This document shows, in pieces, positions 29,343-57,459 of a stretch of DNA of 64,000 nucleotides. The notes under the pieces are model-generated. The model had not been told where the DNA came from, made no database searches, and saw only the letters and a program-made list of their open reading frames with translations. Source of the stretch: Olleya marilimosa CAM030 (GTDB taxonomy: Bacteria; Bacteroidota; Bacteroidia; Flavobacteriales; Flavobacteriaceae); assembly GCF_000518485.1 (NCBI RefSeq), contig NZ_JADR01000009.1:124001-188000 (forward strand), written 5' to 3'. Made by a program: the position numbers and the translations under genes. Positions within the stretch are counted from its first letter, which is position 1. Each line of letters starts with the position of its first letter.

Positions 29343-29687
29343 TTGAATGCCTTTTATAAAATTATTAAGGAAGAAACAATACTACTAAAACTCAAGAAAA
29401 AAAGTGATATTGGGTTTTGGCACTATCATATACTTGGTTTACTAAGTTTTTTCACCAATAATCAATTGGATTATTTATTTATAACCAATAAAAGGATATT
29501 AATATTAATTAAAGATAACATAGTAACTAACATAGCATATACTGGTTTTGAAAAGTTAAAATTTAATAGCATTAACAACACTTTAAGTTTTATTGACACA
29601 AATAACCAACAACAGCAATTATCTTTAAATAAGTTAAGATTAACTTACGAAGAGATACAACAAATAAAGAAAAAACTACATGCCTAA
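29343..29687 (+). CDS. Small PH-like domain protein of unknown function inside the kynurenine operon
   Basis: A 114-aa basic protein with no signal peptide. The pattern KEETILLKLKKKSD... YLFITNKRILILIKDNIV... GFEKLKFNSINNTLSFIDTNNQQ resembles bacterial PH-like (YdbT/YokE-type) domains, where an FITNKRI strand is characteristic. A hydrophobic HILGLLSFFTN stretch precedes it. The start is TTG at 29343, the only start that covers the conserved part. It begins 7 bases after kynU and overlaps kmo by 8 bases, so expression is coupled to the pathway. No enzymatic role is evident. Confidence 0.7.
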   Translation: MNAFYKIIKEETILLKLKKKSDIGFWHYHILGLLSFFTNNQLDYLFITNKRILILIKDNIVTNIAYTGFEKLKFNSINNTLSFIDTNNQQQQLSLNKLRLTYEEIQQIKKKLHA

Positions 29688-31077
29688 TAAACAAAACATA
29701 TTAATCATTGGTGCAGGACTTTGCGGAAGCCTACTAGCACTAAGACTTGGACAAAGAGGCTATAATGTTAACGTGTACGAGATGCGTCCAGACTTACGCA
29801 AAACAGACATATCTGCAGGTCGTTCCATTAATTTAGCATTCTCAGACAGAGGCAACAAGGCAATGAAACTAGTTGGTATTGAAAAACAAGTAGAAGCGCT
29901 TTGTATTCCTATGAATGGTCGTATGATACATGACAAAGAAGGCAATACCTTTTTATCAAATTATAGTGGTCGTGATCATGAGTATATAAACTCAATATCA
30001 AGAGGTGGCTTAAATGCTTTACTTTTAGATGAAGCCGAAAAACATAAAAATGTTACTATTCATTTTAATAAAAAATGTAAATCTGTAGATTTTGAAAATA
30101 CGACTGCTCTTTTTGAAGATTATATTACAAAAGATAAATTTATTGAAGATGCAGATTGCATAATAGCAACAGATGGAGCTGGATCTGCCTTGCGTAAAAG
30201 TTATTATTTAGAACGTAAATTTTTATTTAGCTTTTCTCAAAATTATTTAACACATGGTTATAAGGAGTTAAGCATTTTACCAACAAAAACAGGAGATTAC
30301 AAAACTTATAAAAACGCATTACATATTTGGCCTAGAGGCGACTTTATGGTAATAGCACTTCCAAATTTAGATGGTAGTTTTACCGTAACACTATTTTTAA
30401 GTTATGACCAAGGTGAATATAATTTTAATAACTTAACCACTCCTGAGATTGTAACAGAATTTTTTCAGAAAGAATTTCCGGATGCTTTAGCCTTGATGCC
30501 AAATCTAGTAGAAGACTTTTTTGAAAATCCAACAGCACCTTTAGGTACAGTAAAATGTTCTCCTTGGCACTATAAAGGTAACACCTTGTTAATGGGAGAT
30601 TCAGCACACGCAATAGTCCCTTTTTATGGTCAAGGTATGAATGCTTCTTTTGAAGATGTTGTCGAGTTTGATGCTGTATTGGATAAGTTTGAAGGTAATT
30701 GGGATACTGTTTTTTCAGAATACGAAAAAACTAGAAAAAAAGACACAGACGCTATTGCAGATTTAGCAATAGATAATTTTCATGAAATGAAAGACCACGT
30801 TGGTCAAGCTATATTTCAAGAAAAACGAAAAATTGAACAAGCATTAGAAAAAGAATTCCCTAATGAGTATTCATCAAAATACAGCTTAGTCACTTTTAAT
30901 GAACACATTGGCTATCGCGAAGCAATGTTAAGAGGAAGAGCTCAAGATAAAGCAATTTTAAATATGTTAGCTGATAAAATAATTACAGTTGATAGTGATT
31001 TAAAAGTCATTTTAGATAAAGTAAAAAAAGAAACTGAAGCTATTTTGGAAGATGACAAAATTGCTGGACTGAAATAA
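29680..31077 (+). CDS. kmo: Kynurenine 3-monooxygenase
   Basis: A 465-aa FAD-dependent aromatic hydroxylase converting kynurenine to 3-hydroxykynurenine with NADPH and O2. The N-terminal FAD motif is ILIIGAGLCGSLLALRLGQRG with YEMRPDLRK after it; RSINLAFSDRG and the GMNASFEDV/GDSAHAIVPFYGQG motif (second FAD contact) are all typical of KMO. The C-terminal region is hydrophilic in this bacterial form. It overlaps the preceding PH-like gene by 8 bases. Confidence 0.96.
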   Translation: MPNKQNILIIGAGLCGSLLALRLGQRGYNVNVYEMRPDLRKTDISAGRSINLAFSDRGNKAMKLVGIEKQVEALCIPMNGRMIHDKEGNTFLSNYSGRDHEYINSISRGGLNALLLDEAEKHKNVTIHFNKKCKSVDFENTTALFEDYITKDKFIEDADCIIATDGAGSALRKSYYLERKFLFSFSQNYLTHGYKELSILPTKTGDYKTYKNALHIWPRGDFMVIALPNLDGSFTVTLFLSYDQGEYNFNNLTTPEIVTEFFQKEFPDALALMPNLVEDFFENPTAPLGTVKCSPWHYKGNTLLMGDSAHAIVPFYGQGMNASFEDVVEFDAVLDKFEGNWDTVFSEYEKTRKKDTDAIADLAIDNFHEMKDHVGQAIFQEKRKIEQALEKEFPNEYSSKYSLVTFNEHIGYREAMLRGRAQDKAILNMLADKIITVDSDLKVILDKVKKETEAILEDDKIAGLK

Positions 31078-31122
31078 TTGATAAGCAGCAATCAGTCAGT
31101 AATAAAAAGAAAGAATAATGAA

Positions 31123-31143
31123 ATCCTGAAACAAATTCAGGAT
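31123..31143. repeat. Short palindromic intergenic repeat (ATCCTGAA type)
   Basis: ATCCTGAA-ACAAA-TTCAGGAT forms a perfect 8-bp hairpin in the kmo-aminomuconate deaminase gap, followed by GACG. From memory, near-identical CCTGAA...TTCAGGATGACG units are dispersed in many flavobacterial genomes; this was not searched here. Confidence 0.65.
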
Positions 31144-31163
31144 GACGCAAAAATATAAAATCA

Positions 31164-31571
31164 ATGAACGAAGGAACTAAAGTAACACCAAGAGGAGCCT
31201 ATCCACACGTAAAACAAGTTGGCGATTTCATTTTTGTTTCAGGAACCAGTTCTCGTAGAGCAGATAATAGTATTGCTGGAGTTGATATTATTGACGAAAT
31301 GGGAACTAAAAAACTAAACGCCTACACACAAACGCAAGAAGTTTTAAAAAACATAGATACTAATCTTAAAAAGGTTGGCGCCAGTTTAAAAGACGTTGTA
31401 GATGTTACTTCTTTTTTAGTAAATATGAATGATTTTGCAGATTATAATAAAGCTTACGCTGAGTTTTTTGATAAAGAAACTGGACCAACCAGAACCACTG
31501 TTGCTGTGCACCAATTACCACATCCCGATTTGGTTGTTGAAATTAAAGTAATGGCTTATAAAAAACAGTAA
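31164..31571 (+). CDS. RidA-family 2-aminomuconate deaminase
   Basis: A 135-aa RidA/YjgF-fold protein. Characteristic elements are [61 protein letters not shown] and the conserved Arg in [14 protein letters not shown]. General RidA proteins hydrolyse reactive enamines; the insert [12 protein letters not shown] and the position beside aminomuconate-semialdehyde dehydrogenase indicate the 2-aminomuconate deaminase branch, which yields 4-oxalocrotonate and ammonia. The stop abuts the next gene's ATG with no gap. Confidence 0.88.
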
Positions 31572-33008
31572 ATGAACATTCAAAACTACATAAACGGAAA
31601 TTTCCACAATCCAATTCAAAACCAATGGATAGATAACTACAATCCAAGTAATGGAGAAGTTTACGGACAAATACCAAACTCGTCAAAAGAAGATGTAGAA
31701 AACGCCTATCAAAGTGCCAAAACTGCTTTTACTAGTTGGTCACAAACGAGTATAGAAGAACGTAGTAGAATATTAATAAAAATTTCAGAGTTACTAGAAG
31801 CTAACTTACAACGCTTTGCTGAAGCAGAAAGCAAAGACAACGGAAAACCGATTAGCTTAGCAAAAGCTGTAGATATACCAAGAGCTGCAAGTAACTTTCG
31901 TTTTTTCGGAAATGCCATAACACAGTTTGCTAGTGAAAGTCACGAAAGCATTGGGCAAGCCATAAATTACACCTTACGCCAACCCATTGGTGTTGTAGGT
32001 TGTATTTCCCCTTGGAACCTTCCACTCTATTTATTTACTTGGAAGATTGCTCCAGCAATTGCAGCAGGAAACTGCGTCGTTGCTAAACCAAGCGAAGTCA
32101 CACCAATTACAGCTTATTTATTAGGCGAAATTTGTAACGAAGCAGGTTTACCTAAAGGCGTTTTAAATATTGTACATGGCTTAGGAGGTTCAACTGGACA
32201 AGCCATTATAGAACATGAAGACATAAAAGCCATCAGTTTTACAGGAGGAACAGCAACTGGAGCACATATTGCAAAAGTAGCAGCTCCAATGTTTAAAAAA
32301 CTATCGTTAGAGTTAGGCGGAAAAAACCCAAATATCATTTTTGAAGATTGCGATTATGATGATATGCTAGACACAACAGTGCGTTCATCTTTTGCCAATC
32401 AAGGTCAGATTTGTCTATGTGGAAGCAGAATCTTTGTAGAAGCATCTATCTATGAAAAATTCAAGAAAGATTTTGTTGCAAAAGTGAAGGCCTTAAAAGT
32501 TGGACATCCATCAGAAGCCTCAACAAATATTGGAGCATTAGTATCCAAACCACATTTAGAAAAAGTAAAAGAATATATAAATATCGCTAAAGCGGAAAAC
32601 GGAACAATCCTTTGTGGAGGAAATGAAGTAACTGTAAAAGGTTATGAAAATGGTTACTATTTAGAACCAACAGTTATTGAAGTTCCAAACGATGAATGCA
32701 GAGTAAATCAAGAAGAAATTTTTGGACCTGTAGTTACTATTATGCCTTTTAATACGGAAGACGAAGTATTACTAATGGCAAACAAAGTAAAGTATGGTTT
32801 GTCTGCAACATTGTGGACCAACAACTTAAAACGTACCATGCGAATGAGCAACCAACTACAAGCTGGAATAGTTTGGGTTAACACTTGGATGATGCGCGAT
32901 TTACGTACACCTTTTGGTGGTGTAAAAGCCTCAGGAGTTGGTCGTGAAGGTGGCTTTGAAGCGTTACGCTTTTTTACTGAAGCTAAAAATGTTTGTATTA
33001 AATACTAG
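31572..33008 (+). CDS. 2-aminomuconate-6-semialdehyde dehydrogenase (ALDH superfamily)
   Basis: A 478-aa NAD-dependent aldehyde dehydrogenase. Motifs: CISPWNLPLYLFTWKIAPAI with the catalytic Asn, SFTGGTATG at the NAD site, LSLELGGKNPNIIF with the general-base Glu, FANQGQICLCGSRIF with nucleophile Cys281, and EIFGPVVTIMPF. Sequence alone fits the hydroxymuconic/aminomuconic semialdehyde dehydrogenase subgroup, and the neighbours (deaminase upstream, HAO and ACMSD downstream) make the aminomuconate substrate the best call. It starts immediately after the deaminase stop. Confidence 0.9.
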   Translation: MNIQNYINGNFHNPIQNQWIDNYNPSNGEVYGQIPNSSKEDVENAYQSAKTAFTSWSQTSIEERSRILIKISELLEANLQRFAEAESKDNGKPISLAKAVDIPRAASNFRFFGNAITQFASESHESIGQAINYTLRQPIGVVGCISPWNLPLYLFTWKIAPAIAAGNCVVAKPSEVTPITAYLLGEICNEAGLPKGVLNIVHGLGGSTGQAIIEHEDIKAISFTGGTATGAHIAKVAAPMFKKLSLELGGKNPNIIFEDCDYDDMLDTTVRSSFANQGQICLCGSRIFVEASIYEKFKKDFVAKVKALKVGHPSEASTNIGALVSKPHLEKVKEYINIAKAENGTILCGGNEVTVKGYENGYYLEPTVIEVPNDECRVNQEEIFGPVVTIMPFNTEDEVLLMANKVKYGLSATLWTNNLKRTMRMSNQLQAGIVWVNTWMMRDLRTPFGGVKASGVGREGGFEALRFFTEAKNVCIKY

Positions 33009-33060
33009 TAATGAGTGAGGTCGCGACAGAGTCTATCTTAGGCCTAAACCACAGGCTAGA

Positions 33061-33123
33061 CCAGACATAAAATTAAAATATAAATTAAAACGAAATGTCT
33101 CCTCGAGCGCAGTCGAGAGGTTT
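33061..33123. repeat. Flavobacterial intergenic repeat, copy 1 (left of GIY-YIG gene)
   Basis: A 63-base unit beginning CCAGACATAAAAT and ending CTCGAGCGCAGTCGAGAGG-TTT. It is about 80 percent alike to the unit at 33466-33530. The end carries the imperfect palindrome CTCGAGCGCAGTCGAG. It lies directly before the GIY-YIG ATG. Confidence 0.8.
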
Positions 33124-33126
33124 ATT

Positions 33127-33447
33127 ATGAAAACTTATTTTGTTTATATATTACAATGTTTAGATAACTTAACCTATACAGGAGTTACAAATAACATTTC
33201 CAGAAGATTTGAAGAGCACCAAAATGGATTAAACAAAAATTGTTTTACTTTTAAAAGAAGACCATTAAAGTTAATTTTTCATCAAGAATTTAACGATATT
33301 GAACAAGCAATATTTTTTGAAAAGAAAATAAAAAAGTGGAGTTCAAAAAAGAAATATGCATTAGCTAATGGTGAATTTGATTTATTACAAATTTTATCTG
33401 AATGTAGAAATGCTAGTCATGCTAAATATAATACAGAAAGTGATTAA
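33127..33447 (+). CDS. GIY-YIG domain nuclease-like protein flanked by repeats
   Basis: A 106-aa single-domain GIY-YIG protein (UPF0213/YhbQ-like). The motif reads FVYILQCLDNLTYTGVTNNISRRFEEHQNG: the first Tyr block is YIL, the second YTG, with the catalytic Arg in ISRRFEEH and a metal-binding Glu in AIFFEKKIKKWS. Small stand-alone GIY-YIG proteins of this kind are numerous in Flavobacteriia. It interrupts the aminomuconate/HAO gene run, does not fit the pathway, and is bracketed by two copies of one 63-65-base repeat, with its stop adjoining the right-hand repeat. That suggests a small inserted unit. Confidence 0.88.
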   Translation: MKTYFVYILQCLDNLTYTGVTNNISRRFEEHQNGLNKNCFTFKRRPLKLIFHQEFNDIEQAIFFEKKIKKWSSKKKYALANGEFDLLQILSECRNASHAKYNTESD

Positions 33448-33530
33448 GGTCTCTACTGCGCTCGACCAGACATAAAACACAAAATATAAACTGAAACAAG
33501 ATTGTCTCCTCGAGCGCAGTCGAGAGGTTT
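33448..33530. repeat. Flavobacterial intergenic repeat, copy 2 (right of GIY-YIG gene), with inverted arm
   Basis: The unit at 33466-33530 matches copy 1 (CCAGACATAAAA... CTCGAGCGCAGTCGAGAGG-TTT). It is preceded by TCTACTGCGCTCGACC at 33451-33466, an inverted match to its own palindrome, so the 83 bases could fold into a long hairpin. Confidence 0.8.
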
Positions 33531-33562
33531 CTAAATAAAAAATAATTATCAATTGAGAGCAA

Positions 33563-33587
33563 TGTCTCGACTGAACTCGATCAGACT
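33563..33587. repeat. Partial third copy of the TCTCGACTG...CTCGA repeat
   Basis: TGTCTCGACTGAACTCGATCAGAC is a diverged, inverted-orientation relative of the repeats at 33061 and 33466. It ends 7 bases before the SDR start codon. Confidence 0.6.
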
Positions 33588-33593
33588 AAGATT

Positions 33594-34376
33594 ATGGATT
33601 TACAACTAAACAATAAATACGCATTAGTGTGCGGAAGCACAGCAGGAATAGGAAGAGCAACAGCAATAGCTTTAGCAGAAGAAGGTGTACAAGTAACCCT
33701 TATTGCTAGAAATGAAGACAAGCTAAAAGCAACATTAACAGAGTTACCTCAGCATAGAAACCACGATTACATTGTTGCCGATTTTTCTAACCCGAAAGCG
33801 TTAAAAGAAAAGGTAGAAGCTTACGTAAAAGAGAATCATGGGTTTCATGTATTAGTAAATAATACAGGAGGACCAAAAGGAGGACCAGTATTTTCGGCAG
33901 CTATTGATGAATTTGAAGCTGCTTTTACTCAGCATTTAAAATGTAATCACGTGTTAGCACAAGCAGTGGTTCCGTTTATGAAAAATGAAGGCTTTGGTCG
34001 CATTATAAATGTAATTTCTACATCAGTAAAACAACCTTTAGATGGTCTTGGTGTGAGTAATACCATTCGTGGTGCTGTTGCCAATTGGAGTAAAACCTTG
34101 GCAAACGAACTTGGCCAATTTGGTATTACTGTAAACAATGTTTTACCAGGAGCTACAGGAACAGATCGTTTGGCTGAAATTATTAAAAATAAATCGGTTA
34201 AATCTGGAAACACCGAAGAAGAATCTGCAAATGCTATGAAAAGCGCTGTGCCTGCAAAACGTTTTGCAAAGCCAGAAGAATTGGCTGATGCCATTACCTT
34301 TTTAGCAAGCGAACGTGCGAGTTACATTAACGGAATTAATCTTCCTGTAGATGGAGGAAGAACAAAGAGTTTATAA
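33594..34376 (+). CDS. SDR-fold oxidoreductase-like protein lacking the canonical catalytic Tyr/Lys
   Basis: A 260-aa Rossmann protein with the NAD-binding turn VCGSTAGIGRATAIALAEEG and NNTGGPKGGPVF in place of NNAG. The catalytic Ser region is present (NVISTSVKQPLDGLGVSNTIRGAV), but the usual YxxxK is replaced by SNTIR. This matches the known FabG-like (BKR-like) SDR subgroup with an imperfect NAD motif and catalytic tetrad. Located between the dehydrogenase and HAO genes, it may serve the aminomuconate pathway, but no step clearly requires it. Catalysis by another residue set, or a non-enzymatic role, is possible. Confidence 0.82.
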   Translation: MDLQLNNKYALVCGSTAGIGRATAIALAEEGVQVTLIARNEDKLKATLTELPQHRNHDYIVADFSNPKALKEKVEAYVKENHGFHVLVNNTGGPKGGPVFSAAIDEFEAAFTQHLKCNHVLAQAVVPFMKNEGFGRIINVISTSVKQPLDGLGVSNTIRGAVANWSKTLANELGQFGITVNNVLPGATGTDRLAEIIKNKSVKSGNTEEESANAMKSAVPAKRFAKPEELADAITFLASERASYINGINLPVDGGRTKSL

Positions 34377-34503
34377 TTCTTTATTTCGTTTTTTATCACT
34401 AATTTTATTGAATTGATGAATCTGCGTTAAGGATTACTCACAGATTAATATTTTAAAATATTGATTTCGTGAACCTAAAGGTTTGAAAGGTTTGTTTGAG
34501 CTC

Positions 34504-34555
34504 CTCGCAGAGAGCGAGCCTTGAAAGCCTGACCCTTTTTAGGGTAACGCCCAAA
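34504..34555. repeat. Intergenic hairpin repeat (CTCGC...GCGAG and ACCCT...AGGGT)
   Basis: Two adjacent hairpins, CTCGC-AGAGA-GCGAG and ACCCT-TTTT-AGGGT, are followed by AACGCCC just before HAO. The second part, GACCCTT..GGTAACGCCC, also ends the larger element at 42565-42654, so the two are probably related repeat copies. Confidence 0.6.
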
Positions 34556-34565
34556 ATATTATACC

Positions 34566-35102
34566 ATGAGTAAATTATATCCACCTGTAAATTTTAAAGC
34601 TTGGATTGAAGAAAATAGACATCTTTTAAAACCACCTGTTGGCAATAAAGTAGTGTGGAAAGATGGTGATTTTATTGTTATGGTTGTTGGTGGACCAAAT
34701 AATAGAAAGGACTACCATTACAACGAAACACCTGAATTTTTCCATCAAATTGAAGGAGATATTGTCTTAAAAGTAATAGAAGACGGTGTCCCAAAAGATA
34801 TACATATTAAGGAAGGAGAAATATTTTTATTACCTCCAAAAGTACCACATTCGCCACAACGTGGTGCAAATACTGTTGGCTTAGTGATTGAATATCCAAG
34901 AGAAAAAGGTGTACAAGATGCTTTACTTTGGTTCTGTGAAAATTGTACAACAAAACTTTACGAAGAAGATTTTACAGTCAAAAATATTGAAACTGATATG
35001 CCTAAAATATTTGATAAATATTATGGCGATAAAGACAAACGCACTTGCCCTAATTGTGGTGAAATTATGGAACCACCAAAAAAGGTTAAGTTAGAAGACT
35101 AG
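34566..35102 (+). CDS. nbaC: 3-hydroxyanthranilate 3,4-dioxygenase
   Basis: A 178-aa cupin dioxygenase that opens the ring of 3-hydroxyanthranilate to 2-amino-3-carboxymuconate-6-semialdehyde. Iron ligands His51, Glu57 and His95 sit at the exact positions known from the Cupriavidus enzyme, with substrate-binding Arg47 and Arg99. The C-terminal rubredoxin-like iron site has Cys124, Cys127, Cys161 and Cys164, typical of bacterial forms. Length is normal. The product is unstable and cyclises to quinolinate unless taken by the decarboxylase encoded next. Confidence 0.97.
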   Translation: MSKLYPPVNFKAWIEENRHLLKPPVGNKVVWKDGDFIVMVVGGPNNRKDYHYNETPEFFHQIEGDIVLKVIEDGVPKDIHIKEGEIFLLPPKVPHSPQRGANTVGLVIEYPREKGVQDALLWFCENCTTKLYEEDFTVKNIETDMPKIFDKYYGDKDKRTCPNCGEIMEPPKKVKLED

Positions 35103-35159
35103 TTAGCAAAAGCAACAAAGTTGGGATTAAAAATAACATTAGCTTAATTGAAAGTCCCA

Positions 35160-35345
35160 AATCAATTTGTAAAATTGAATGCCAAGGCGAAGAATAGATA
35201 AAGAAAAGCTTCGAGAGCAGGAGAACTTTGTTCGACGCGAAGTTTTCGTATCGGTTTTCAGTTTAAAACTGAAAAATTCCTTGGCTTGGATGTCTTTTTT
35301 TGGTTCGTTTTTTGGACAAGCAAAAAATGAATAGAGAAACAATAT
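35160..35345. repeat. Long structured intergenic repeat element between HAO and the decarboxylase gene
   Basis: The 310-base gap after HAO holds no credible gene. Hairpin-forming parts include GTTTTCAGTTT-AAAACTGAAAA (about 35253-35275) and an A/T-flanked stretch GTCTTTTTTTGGTTCG...GGACAAGC. I recall similar blocks with CCAAGGCGAAGAAT at one end and GGACAAGCAAAAAATGAATA at the other from other flavobacterial genomes, where they recur between genes; this is memory, not a search. Confidence 0.6.
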
Positions 35346-35388
35346 AACCAAAGAAGTTCAAAAACAACTTGAACTCCGATTAACAAGA

Positions 35389-35406
35389 TTCCCACTTTCG
35401 TGGGAA
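35389..35406. repeat. Hairpin repeat TTCCCAC-TTTC-GTGGGAA just before the ACMSD start
   Basis: A perfect 7-bp stem with a 4-base loop ends 6 bases before the ATG at 35413. It resembles dispersed TCCC..GGGA palindromes of flavobacteria and would cover the ribosome landing site in the mRNA, so it could reduce or condition translation. Confidence 0.65.
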
Positions 35407-35412
35407 GTGAAT

Positions 35413-36498
35413 ATGGAAACACGTAAACTTAGAATTAACGGTCACTCACACTTATTGCCATATCCAGAGGAAATCCCTCAGTTTATGCAAGACAAAGAAA
35501 TTTTTTGGGTGGATAAAGACCGAAAATTTATGCTTCAAAAAGATTGGAACAGACCAATTACAGATTCTAGTTTCTTTTTAGATGAAAAACTAGCTTGGAT
35601 GGAACGTTTTAAAATTGACCATGCAGTTGTTTTAAATTTATCGCAATTATATGGTAATGGTTTGCGTGTGGAAGAAATGAAGCAAGCGCTTAAATTTCAA
35701 AACGATTTTAATGCTAAAGTACAACGCGAAAACCCAAGTAAATTTACTTGTGGTTTTGTAGTACATCCTGGTTTTGTTAGAGGAGCCTGTTGGGAAATTG
35801 AGCGTTGTGTGGAAGAATTAGGTATGCAATTACTTTGCTTACCAACCCATTATATGGATACTATTGGAACTTGGCGTTGTATTTTTGACGAAGAAAACGA
35901 GCCTATTTTTGAAATGGCTAACAAGTATAATCTAGCTGTAGAAATACACCCTTACGATGGTGAAAAATTTATAAAACTAGAAAACACGTCTTGGCGTTTT
36001 CACTTAATATGGATGCTAGCACAATGTGCAGATGCCTACCACTTTTTAACTTTAAACGGTTACCAAGATAAGTACCCAAATATGAGAACTTGTTTTGCGC
36101 ATGGTGGACAATTAGCACAAATAAACTTAGGAAGACGTATTCAAGGTTTTGATGGTAGACCAGATTTATTTGAAGGTAAAAGTCACCCAAGAAAAGCGGT
36201 TGGACATAAAAACATATTTTTCGATACCTTAGTACATGATACTGGTGGATTAGATTTATTATTAAAAAACCAAGGTTCTAAACAGGTATTAATGGGACTT
36301 GACGATCCTTATCCTTTAGGGGAAATGGAAAGCGAGAAACAAAGCTCGTATCCTGGAAAAATTTTAGATTTAGCTATAGAACGAAAAATTATTACAGAAA
36401 CAGAACGAGATGCTATTTGGGAAGATAACGTGATCCAATGGTTATGTGGAGATGACCAAGCTGCTAAAGACAAACTTGTAAAACGAATATTGGGTTAA
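35413..36498 (+). CDS. 2-amino-3-carboxymuconate-6-semialdehyde decarboxylase (ACMSD)
   Basis: About 361 aa, amidohydrolase superfamily with a metal-dependent TIM barrel. The metal motif HxH is at His11 and His13 (INGHSHLLPYPEE), with further ligands in VEIHPYDGEK and a conserved CFAHGGQLAQINLGRR, and the metal Asp in MGLDDPYPLGEME. ACMSD removes CO2 from the HAO product, diverting flux from quinolinate/NAD to 2-aminomuconate. ATG at 35413 is chosen over in-frame GTG at 35407, which lies at the hairpin base. Its stop shares a base with the next small gene's ATG. Confidence 0.94.
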   Translation: METRKLRINGHSHLLPYPEEIPQFMQDKEIFWVDKDRKFMLQKDWNRPITDSSFFLDEKLAWMERFKIDHAVVLNLSQLYGNGLRVEEMKQALKFQNDFNAKVQRENPSKFTCGFVVHPGFVRGACWEIERCVEELGMQLLCLPTHYMDTIGTWRCIFDEENEPIFEMANKYNLAVEIHPYDGEKFIKLENTSWRFHLIWMLAQCADAYHFLTLNGYQDKYPNMRTCFAHGGQLAQINLGRRIQGFDGRPDLFEGKSHPRKAVGHKNIFFDTLVHDTGGLDLLLKNQGSKQVLMGLDDPYPLGEMESEKQSSYPGKILDLAIERKIITETERDAIWEDNVIQWLCGDDQAAKDKLVKRILG

Positions 36499-57157: not shown

Positions 57158-57349
57158 ATATTATTAATCATACAAAAGTGGACTAACAACCCTTTATTTA
57201 ATCTTTTAAAATCCGCGAGATTTTTCCTCTTGGGTTTGTATGTGTTAAATTAAATGATTGAGACGCGGAACTTACCAATTACAACAATCCAAACAATTAA
57301 AAATTGAAGTATATAGACAAATTCAAACAAAAAAAGTAACTTTACAAAA
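57158..57349. other. Non-coding upstream part of the riboswitch leader
   Basis: No credible gene. AT-rich DNA between the FG-GAP gene and the riboswitch, presumably holding the promoter of the thi operon; no unambiguous TTTG/TAnnTTTG pair at the right spacing was found. Confidence 0.5.
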
Positions 57350-57426
57350 TCGTTAGGGGTGCCCAAATATGGCTGAGATTATACCCTATGAACCTGATAT
57401 GTTTAACAACAGCGGAGGGAAACGAG
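57350..57426 (+). promoter_or_regulatory. TPP (thi-box) riboswitch
   Basis: The conserved TPP aptamer is complete: GGGGTGCCC at 57356-57364, GGCTGAGATTATACCC (pyrimidine-sensing arm), GAACCTGATATG, and AACAGCGGAGGGAA at the P1-closing side, with outer helix ATCGTT/AACGAG closing the molecule. Binding of thiamine pyrophosphate would lower expression of the thiamine salvage operon that begins with thiM at 57517. Confidence 0.96.
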
Positions 57427-57427
57427 C

Positions 57428-57459
57428 CTTGTACATAATTGCATATATAATTATACAAG
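57428..57459 (+). promoter_or_regulatory. Hairpin between TPP aptamer and terminator
   Basis: CTTGTACATAATT and AATTATACAAG form a stem with one bulge. It lies between the aptamer and the terminator stem and shares its last base with it, suggesting a folding switch (antiterminator-like or spacer) in the attenuator. Confidence 0.55.

What the first reader, a model, noticed from the sequence alone, without database searches (positions are those of the whole stretch)
31078..35412. Unusual concentration of different palindromic repeats inside one catabolic operon
Junctions from kmo to ACMSD carry several hairpin repeats: ATCCTGAA..TTCAGGAT (31123), CTCGAGCGCAGTCGAG twice (33061, 33466) plus a partial copy (33563), a CTCGC/ACCCT pair (34504), a 186-base element (35160) and TTCCCAC..GTGGGAA (35389). 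Only one comparable repeat (42565) is seen elsewhere in 64 kb. Repeats this dense inside an operon could act as mRNA processing or stability sites tuning each enzyme, or mark an insertion hot spot. Both are inference.
Basis: partly seen in the sequence, partly recalled or inferred. Interest (0 to 1): 0.72.

Follow-up and report, generated by a model that had tools for sequence, protein, structure and literature searches.

The report
Nuclease gene inside a kynurenine operon

Summary
The repeats are real, but their core was missed: an intact GIY-YIG nuclease gene (33127-33447) lies between the semialdehyde-dehydrogenase and SDR genes, and the CTCGAGCGCAGTCGAG hairpins are its flanking repeats. 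In Flavobacteriaceae such genes are bracketed by palindromes with a [TC]GTC tag, and each nuclease subfamily has its own repeat class (79 of 86 loci; shuffled labels average 27). The variable stem arms compensate (152 of 193 units fully paired; slid controls at most 3). Class-A genes lie in the kynurenine operon in 16 of 30 family loci and 26 of 48 loci of a named collection (at least 6 genomes shared), all co-oriented, in four junctions; other classes 0 of 64 and 0 of 31. Sixty-nine operon loci hold 83 core units in 640 kb; controls 1 in 200 kb. Relatives show empty, repeat-only and degenerate-gene junctions. The repeats resemble the CGTC/TGTC-tagged REP superfamily, said in 2013 to lack a dedicated enzyme; a GIY-YIG nuclease is the candidate. 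The principle resembles the Ssn nucleases (recalled; paper not held). Hairpin 31123 is a canonical CGTC REP; 42565 is a Flavo-1 RNA. Cleavage, mobility and any RNA effect are inferred or untested.

The parts
33127..33447 (+). GIY-YIG nuclease gene, 106 aa, class A
   Evidence: PF01541 64.5 bits; intact frame; residues Y7, Y17, G19, R27, H31, E65 invariant in 9 diverse relatives; AlphaFold2 mean pLDDT 82.9, best PDB matches UPF0213 1zg2 and 1ywl, then Slx1
33096..33120 (+). Class-A unit (L-form), tag TGTC at 33096-33099, just upstream of the gene
33448..33472 (-). Class-A unit (R-form), tag GACA at right end, abutting the stop codon
33503..33527 (+). Second L-form class-A unit
   Evidence: D1 (84% over 45 nt with 33096-33140)
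33563..33587 (-). Degenerate R-form class-A unit before SDR
   Evidence: I2 and I6; same place in G003
33019..33067 (-). Degenerate R-form class-A unit with the loop replaced by a longer stretch
   Evidence: GGTCGCGAC..CTAGACCAGACA; better kept in G005 as GGTCTCGAC..CTCGACCAGACA
31123..31147 (-). Class-D repeat: 8-bp stem, 5-nt loop, CGTC tag (GACG at 31144-31147)
   Evidence: motif class of GIY gene G000:C8:88677-88919 in the same genome; geometry fits the CGTC REP definition in PMC3733652
35389..35406 (.). TTCCCAC..GTGGGAA hairpin, degenerate dRS3/CGTC-1-like
   Evidence: 35388-35407 fits ATTCCC(N8)GGGAAT at 19 of 20 positions (pattern from PMC3898611); tag degenerate; most genus relatives have a different hairpin (ATTGCCACG..CGCAATGACA) at this place
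35153..35338 (+). Dispersed structured ~186-nt element, type 1
   Evidence: one other copy in this genome (89%); 17 matches in 8 of 10 genus genomes, 10 of them in the kyn operon; swapped for a type-2 relative at the same site in G003 and G006, absent in G001 and G008
34504..34545 (.). CTCGC / ACCCT hairpin pair
   Evidence: kept at SDR|HAO in G002-G005, altered in G006 and G009, absent in G001 and G008; no [TC]GTC tag seen
29680..36498 (+). Host operon: kmo 29680-31077, RidA-like 31164-31571, semialdehyde dehydrogenase (AMSDH-like) 31572-33008, SDR 33594-34376, 3-HAO 34566-35102, ACMSD-like amidohydrolase 35407-36498

Best explanation
The hairpins around 33.0-33.6 kb are the cognate repeats of a small GIY-YIG nuclease encoded between them. 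Gene plus repeats form a REPtron-like unit: TGTC-tagged imperfect hairpins in inverted orientation bracket the gene, and shorter gene-free inverted pairs lie in other junctions. Most likely mechanism (inferred): the nuclease recognises the hairpin with its fixed core and [TC]GTC tag on single-stranded DNA, for instance at replication forks or during DNA uptake, cuts near the tag, and repair or recombination then copies, converts or removes units. The kynurenine operon is a preferred home of class A in Flavobacteriaceae, with the gene co-oriented and probably read from the operon promoter. The other hairpins of the operon are a class-D CGTC repeat whose nuclease lies elsewhere in the genome, a degenerate dRS3-like repeat and a separate ~186-nt element. 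Shown: gene, brackets, class matching, tag, arm covariation, operon residence in several junctions, empty and filled states. Inferred: cleavage, single-strand preference, mobility, promoter use, effect on expression.
For: GIY-YIG domain with conserved residues and fold. Own-class motif within 500 bp in 79 of 86 class A-D loci, shuffled labels mean 27.1, maximum 43 of 10,000 (includes the genus loci from which the classes were first seen). Named collection: A/B core beside 54 of 58 A/B loci, class-C motif beside none of these 58. Tag [TC]GTC at fixed distance in 75 of 83 A, 103 of 114 B, 142 of 153 C, 41 of 53 D and 9 of 11 G units. Three-base arm fully Watson-Crick in 152 of 193 distinct A/B units with 19 different complementary arm pairs, slid controls 0-3; per pair 94, 90, 88% against shuffled 48, 27, 37%. 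Nearest units outward-tagged on both sides of the gene in 50 of the 67 loci that have a unit within 300 bp on both sides (88 loci examined). Density: 83 units in 640 kb of 69 operon loci, 1 in 200 kb controls, 0 in 240 kb of this genome; 17 in 456 kb in the 50 operons without any GIY hit; 36 in 102 kb against 0 in 110 kb in 11 matched genomes. Junction ridA|AMSDH: class-A repeats in G001, G003, G005, G008, stop directly joined to start in G000, G002, G004, G006; degenerate gene between class-A repeats in G001.
Against: No cleavage, transposition or RNA data. No target-site duplication recognised. Repeats outlive the gene: G001 and G008 have the most R-form places (12 and 13) yet only a remnant or no class-A gene in the operon. 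Two of 30 class-A loci (L149, L160), the 4 class-H loci and one class-D locus have no motif. Class C in the named set has its motif in only 4 of 8 loci. A model-free scan for perfect 6-bp hairpins next to any tetranucleotide did not single out TGTC or CGTC. Outside the family tags are dense beside the genes (9.75/kb against 2.76/kb further out in the same loci) but the outward orientation is not seen (6 of 17). Operon residence and junction changes are not resolved on the short gene's trees (starred branches force 1 change).
Confidence: 0.7

Rival explanations
1. The unit is a host-serving Ssn-type system: the nuclease cuts incoming or exposed single strands at its repeats and so modulates natural transformation or recombination near the repeats; it does not spread the repeats, which are copied by ordinary recombination.
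For: Same domain, small single-domain protein, repeats around the gene and dispersed; the recalled Ssn/NTS work in Neisseria reports this. CGTC-1 REPs equal dRS3 in Neisseria (PMC3733652).
Against: Does not by itself explain four different junctions of one operon, nor patchy loss. The Ssn paper was not held, so the match to it is from memory.
Confidence: 0.35
2. One reading: the hairpins are RNA elements that process or stabilise segments of the operon mRNA.
For: They lie in the transcript and fold; GTAG/CGTC REPs in general are thought to be transcribed and to act as RNA elements (PMC3733652 abstract).
Against: Junctions of the same operon lack them in close relatives; 44 of 69 operons have neither unit nor GIY gene in a scored junction; units occur in both orientations and track a nuclease gene.
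Confidence: 0.12
3. Operon-specific homing: the GIY-YIG protein acts like a homing endonuclease that spreads by recombination between the conserved kyn genes of different strains and species.
For: Family includes homing enzymes (I-TevI, recalled); gene always co-oriented; flanking kyn genes 66-100% identical between hosts; GIY groups G094 with G157, unlike AMSDH.
Against: Four junctions rather than one site; about half of class-A genes lie outside the operon; the palindromic brackets and gene-free pairs are not expected for a homing gene.
Confidence: 0.15
4. Old passenger: one ancestral insertion in the kyn operon, inherited vertically with many losses and a few local moves; today immobile.
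For: Junction labels cluster on the GIY tree (18 changes, shuffled mean 27.5); one origin of residence is not excluded.
Against: On the AMSDH tree AMSDH|SDR residence needs at least 6 changes on well-supported branches; exact stop-to-start joins in half of the genus at a junction that others fill would need precise loss.
Confidence: 0.3

Closest known systems
CGTC-tagged REPs (Di Nocera, De Gregorio, Rocco 2013; PMC3733652; passages and section 6 read)
   Same: Short palindromes with a CGTC tag often changed to TGTC, several families per genome, known from Bacteroidetes; 31123-31147 fits the 8-bp stem, 5-nt loop, A and T first geometry.
   Different: That paper found no dedicated transposase; here GIY-YIG genes are bracketed by the repeats. 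Class-A/B units have a short variable arm, a bulge and a conserved core instead of an 8-9 bp stem.
Ssn site-specific single-strand nucleases and their NTS repeats (Nat Commun 2025, recalled; not held)
   Same: Small GIY-YIG protein with cognate dispersed repeats around its gene.
   Different: Recalled work centres on Neisseria and transformation; here four or more classes in one family, arm covariation, and residence in one catabolic operon. Activity untested here.
RAYT/TnpA-REP REPtrons and REPINs (PMC2817692, PMC3116915, PMC8266576: abstract starts in listings; PMC3733652 passages)
   Same: A nuclease gene flanked by inverted tagged hairpins with gene-free pairs elsewhere; tag next to the hairpin.
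   Different: Enzyme is GIY-YIG, not a HUH/tyrosine transposase; tag [TC]GTC, not GTAG.
UPF0213 GIY-YIG proteins (PDB 1zg2, 1ywl)
   Same: Best sequence matches (E 5e-10, 4e-07) and best fold matches.
   Different: Those entries are structural-genomics proteins without assigned repeats in the records seen.
Neisserial dRS3 (ATTCCC(N8)GGGAAT; PMC3898611, passages)
   Same: Window 35388-35407 fits 19 of 20 positions.
   Different: Tag lost; resemblance of one hairpin only.

Membership tests
GIY-YIG superfamily (PF01541) | Domain match above curated cut-off | tested here: met
   64.5 bits against 22.6
GIY-YIG superfamily (PF01541) | Catalytic residues present (Tyr, Arg, Glu; which ones is recalled from I-TevI and UvrC) | tested here: met
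   Y7, Y17, R27, E65 invariant in 9 of 9 aligned
CGTC-tagged REP (31123-31147) | CGTC/TGTC/CCTC tag at one end | tested here: met
   GACG at 31144-31147 on + strand
CGTC-tagged REP (31123-31147) | 8-9 bp stem beginning with A and T, loop of 4-5 | tested here: met
   ATCCTGAA/TTCAGGAT with loop ACAAA (definition)
CGTC-tagged REP (class-A units) | Tag at one end | tested here: met
   [TC]GTC in 75 of 83 units at class-A loci
CGTC-tagged REP (class-A units) | Uninterrupted 8-9 bp stem with A and T first | tested here: not met
   3-base arm, bulge and core; so class A is REP-like, not filed as one of the four published CGTC families
CGTC-tagged REP | High copy number in the genome | tested here: not met
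   R-form pattern 2 places in this genome, 0-13 in ten genus genomes; class D not counted genome-wide
Ssn nuclease (definition recalled) | Cognate repeats around the gene | tested here: met
Ssn nuclease (definition recalled) | Sequence-specific cleavage of single-stranded DNA only | not testable with these tools
   needs biochemistry
Ssn nuclease (definition recalled) | Phylogenetic grouping with the Neisseria protein | not tested
   Neisseria protein not fetched; paper not held
RAYT REPtron | HUH/tyrosine transposase (TnpA-REP) gene | tested here: not met
   the gene is GIY-YIG; one Pfam family matched
RAYT REPtron | Gene bracketed by tagged inverted repeats | tested here: met
   50 of 67 loci with units on both sides
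Flavo-1 RNA (42565 repeat) | Score above Rfam gathering threshold | tested here: met
   45.2 against 42 bits

The most novel reading that the evidence does not exclude
GIY-YIG nucleases are the missing dedicated enzymes of the CGTC/TGTC-tagged REP superfamily: each subfamily reads the tag plus a hairpin whose outer arm is free to vary if paired, and it spreads, converts and removes its repeats by a non-HUH route. The class-A unit has specialised on one catabolic operon, moving between its junctions and reading its own gene off the operon promoter, a new way for a selfish element to shelter in a host operon.
Probability: 0.3. Interest if true: 0.85.

Novelty: new variant of a known kind. Interest (0 to 1): 0.62.

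Why it matters
In 2013 the describers of CGTC REPs wrote that they 'apparently lack a dedicated transposase'. The data here point to a testable candidate enzyme with matched repeat classes in one family and similar tag density in loci beyond it. Each nuclease comes with a predicted target (tag, core, paired arm), so specificity can be tested by swapping classes. The repeated residence in the kynurenine operon gives a natural series of empty, repeat-only, gene-bearing and degenerate junctions for studying how such units move and whether they change the expression of a catabolic pathway.

Tried and rejected
Rejected: Rfam structured RNAs for the operon hairpins (no match above gathering in 30900-35600 among the two window matches; two sub-threshold matches only). 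Rejected as evidence: the model-free tetranucleotide-hairpin scan, which missed the imperfect stems and did not rank TGTC or CGTC high (ranks 111 and 56 of 253 in the 22-locus set, 40 and 12 of 256 in the 69-locus set). The 22-locus set wrongly held two family members (L389, L392); one search repeats the test without them. Outward orientation outside the family: not supported. One origin or many of operon residence: unresolved. The 186-nt element was aligned and folded without a function emerging. Literature: full-text searches of the held library found no paper linking GIY-YIG genes to REPs; the one paper with both terms (PMC9465073, passages) lists RayT and a GIY-YIG endonuclease as separate clade-1 genes. 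The searched repeat strings occur in 20 papers; the 15 listed are, by title, unrelated to bacterial repeats. Most subscription papers and all bioRxiv preprints are outside that library. Rows dropped: 2 of 94 GIY loci as duplicates; L112 had no tblastn hit; 60 of 98 family AMSDH places were fetched, best matches first; one of 19 GIY hits in operons is a clear remnant (L076) and two are weak partial hits (L242, L251).
Full report
Observation. The window is G000:C8:124001-188000 of a 3.34-Mb genome. One same-genus genome, G003, has the contig length and position of Olleya sediminilitoris NZ_JAEMEF010000003.1, so the window is probably from Olleya (inference). The listed hairpins are all present, two of them about 42 bases right of the stated coordinates. 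Counted as strict perfect hairpins the local excess is modest (4 in 843 non-coding bases against 46 in 31,830 in a genome sample). The strong evidence is comparative.

What was missed. Between the dehydrogenase and SDR genes lies an intact 106-aa GIY-YIG gene (33127-33447; PF01541). Its stop codon abuts an inverse repeat (33448-33472) and its start follows a direct one (33096-33120); a third and two degenerate copies complete the cluster. The exact core CTCGAGCGCAGTCGAG occurs nowhere else in the genome. The predicted fold is a GIY-YIG domain.

Repeat classes follow nuclease subfamilies. In ten genus genomes the GIY-YIG genes related to this one lie among short palindromes whose class follows the protein (18 loci viewed). 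Among 199 family genomes, 63 have a relative at E <= 1e-20. In 92 distinct loci, own-class motifs lie within 500 bp in 79 of the 86 loci of classes A-D; shuffled labels give 27 on average and at most 43. This set includes the genus loci that suggested the classes. In the named genome collection 54 of 58 A/B loci have the A/B core and none the class-C motif, but class C has its motif in only 4 of 8. Class H (4 loci) has none of the motifs.

Anatomy of the unit. Units carry [TC]GTC at a fixed distance from the core (75 of 83, 103 of 114, 142 of 153, 41 of 53 and 9 of 11 in classes A, B, C, D, G). In 193 distinct A/B units the core is constant while a 3-base arm varies and is matched by its complement in 152, through 19 different arm pairs; sliding the partner leaves 0-3. 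This shows that pairing is kept, as DNA or RNA. In 50 of the 67 loci with units on both sides within 300 bp the nearest tags point outward.

The kynurenine operon as home. Sixteen of 30 class-A loci from genus and family lie in the operon, against 0 of 64 of other classes: AMSDH|SDR 11, ridA|AMSDH 2, before AMSDH without ridA in reach 1, kmo|ridA 1, ACMSD|OMT 1. All 16 and all 26 are co-oriented with the operon. In 69 operon loci (60 of 98 fetched family places, 8 genus, window) 83 core units occur in 640 kb, against 1 in 200 kb of control DNA and 0 in 240 kb of this genome. Part of this is the cassette itself; the 50 operons without any GIY hit still hold 17 units in 456 kb. In 11 genomes with both a control stretch and an operon locus it is 36 against 0. 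In all, 25 of 69 operons have a unit or the gene in a scored junction.

Signs of movement. In the genus, junction ridA|AMSDH holds class-A repeats in G001, G003, G005 and G008 (second copy degenerate in G001 and G008), joins stop to start directly in G000, G002, G004 and G006, and holds another hairpin in G009. ACMSD|OMT and AMSDH|SDR vary likewise, and G001 keeps only a shortened gene between class-A repeats. On the AMSDH tree residence at AMSDH|SDR needs at least 6 well-supported changes, gains or losses; the short GIY gene cannot tell one origin from many. No target-site duplication was recognised. R-form places are most numerous in G001 and G008 (12 and 13), which have a remnant or no class-A gene in the operon; 9 of 47 places in the genus are in the operon.

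The other hairpins. 31123-31147 has the 8-bp stem, 5-nt loop and CGTC tag that define CGTC REPs (section 6 of PMC3733652) and belongs to class D, whose nuclease is at G000:C8:88677-88919. 35388-35407 fits the neisserial dRS3 pattern at 19 of 20 positions but its tag is gone (for the pattern). The ~186-nt element is separate: 17 matches in 8 of 10 genus genomes, 10 of them in the kyn operon, one of these a 27-nt fragment, with a second type at the same site in two genomes. 34504-34545 is untagged and of unknown origin.

Comparison with the known. Di Nocera et al. 2013 described CGTC-tagged REPs, in Bacteroidetes among others, and stated that they apparently lack a dedicated transposase (passages). 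The link found here supplies a candidate enzyme. From memory, the Ssn family (Nature Communications 2025; not held) already established GIY-YIG nucleases with cognate repeats in Neisseria, so the principle is probably known; hence 'new variant of a known kind'. New to my knowledge, and not found in the searches named in Tried and rejected, are the class-by-class matching in Flavobacteriaceae, the paired free arm, and the operon residence. Beyond the family, 20 loci have 9.75 tags per kb beside the gene against 2.76 further out in the same loci, but without the outward orientation (6 of 17 with tags on both sides).

Limits. Everything is comparative. Cleavage, single-strand preference, mobility and any effect on operon expression remain to be tested.

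Noticed in passing
window 57345-57437: TPP riboswitch (RF00059, 63.4 bits).
   Followed up: no
   Followed up: partly
L288 (G005 kmo|ridA) and G009 kmo|ridA: A class-B-like unit appears inside the loop of the ~186-nt element or its type-2 relative, a nested insertion by look.
   Followed up: no
L081 (G006), SDR|HAO junction: A class-C-like unit (GTCAGTTCGAGTG..GTATCGAGAAC) lies inside the otherwise conserved stretch that ends in the ACCCT hairpin.
   Followed up: no
HAO|ACMSD junction, L078 (G003) and L081 (G006) against the window: Type-1 and type-2 ~186-nt elements are exchanged between shared flanks, as if by conversion.
   Followed up: partly
L077, L081, L082, L083, AMSDH|SDR junction: In G002, G006, G008 and G009 the junction holds other, unrelated-looking coding DNA instead of the GIY gene.
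   Followed up: no
L097 (G008:C1:2718098-2718316): A GIY gene with an in-frame stop, closest to class D, with two A/B core units in the locus and R-form class-A repeats nearby at 2714678 and 2719419.
   Followed up: partly
L081 (G006), kmo|ridA junction: Tandem array of GCAGTTA units.
   Followed up: no
G001, G003, G004, G008 (five places): CGTCTCGACTGCGCTCGACGAGACA, a nearly perfect palindrome present at five places in the genus, perhaps a separate class.
   Followed up: no
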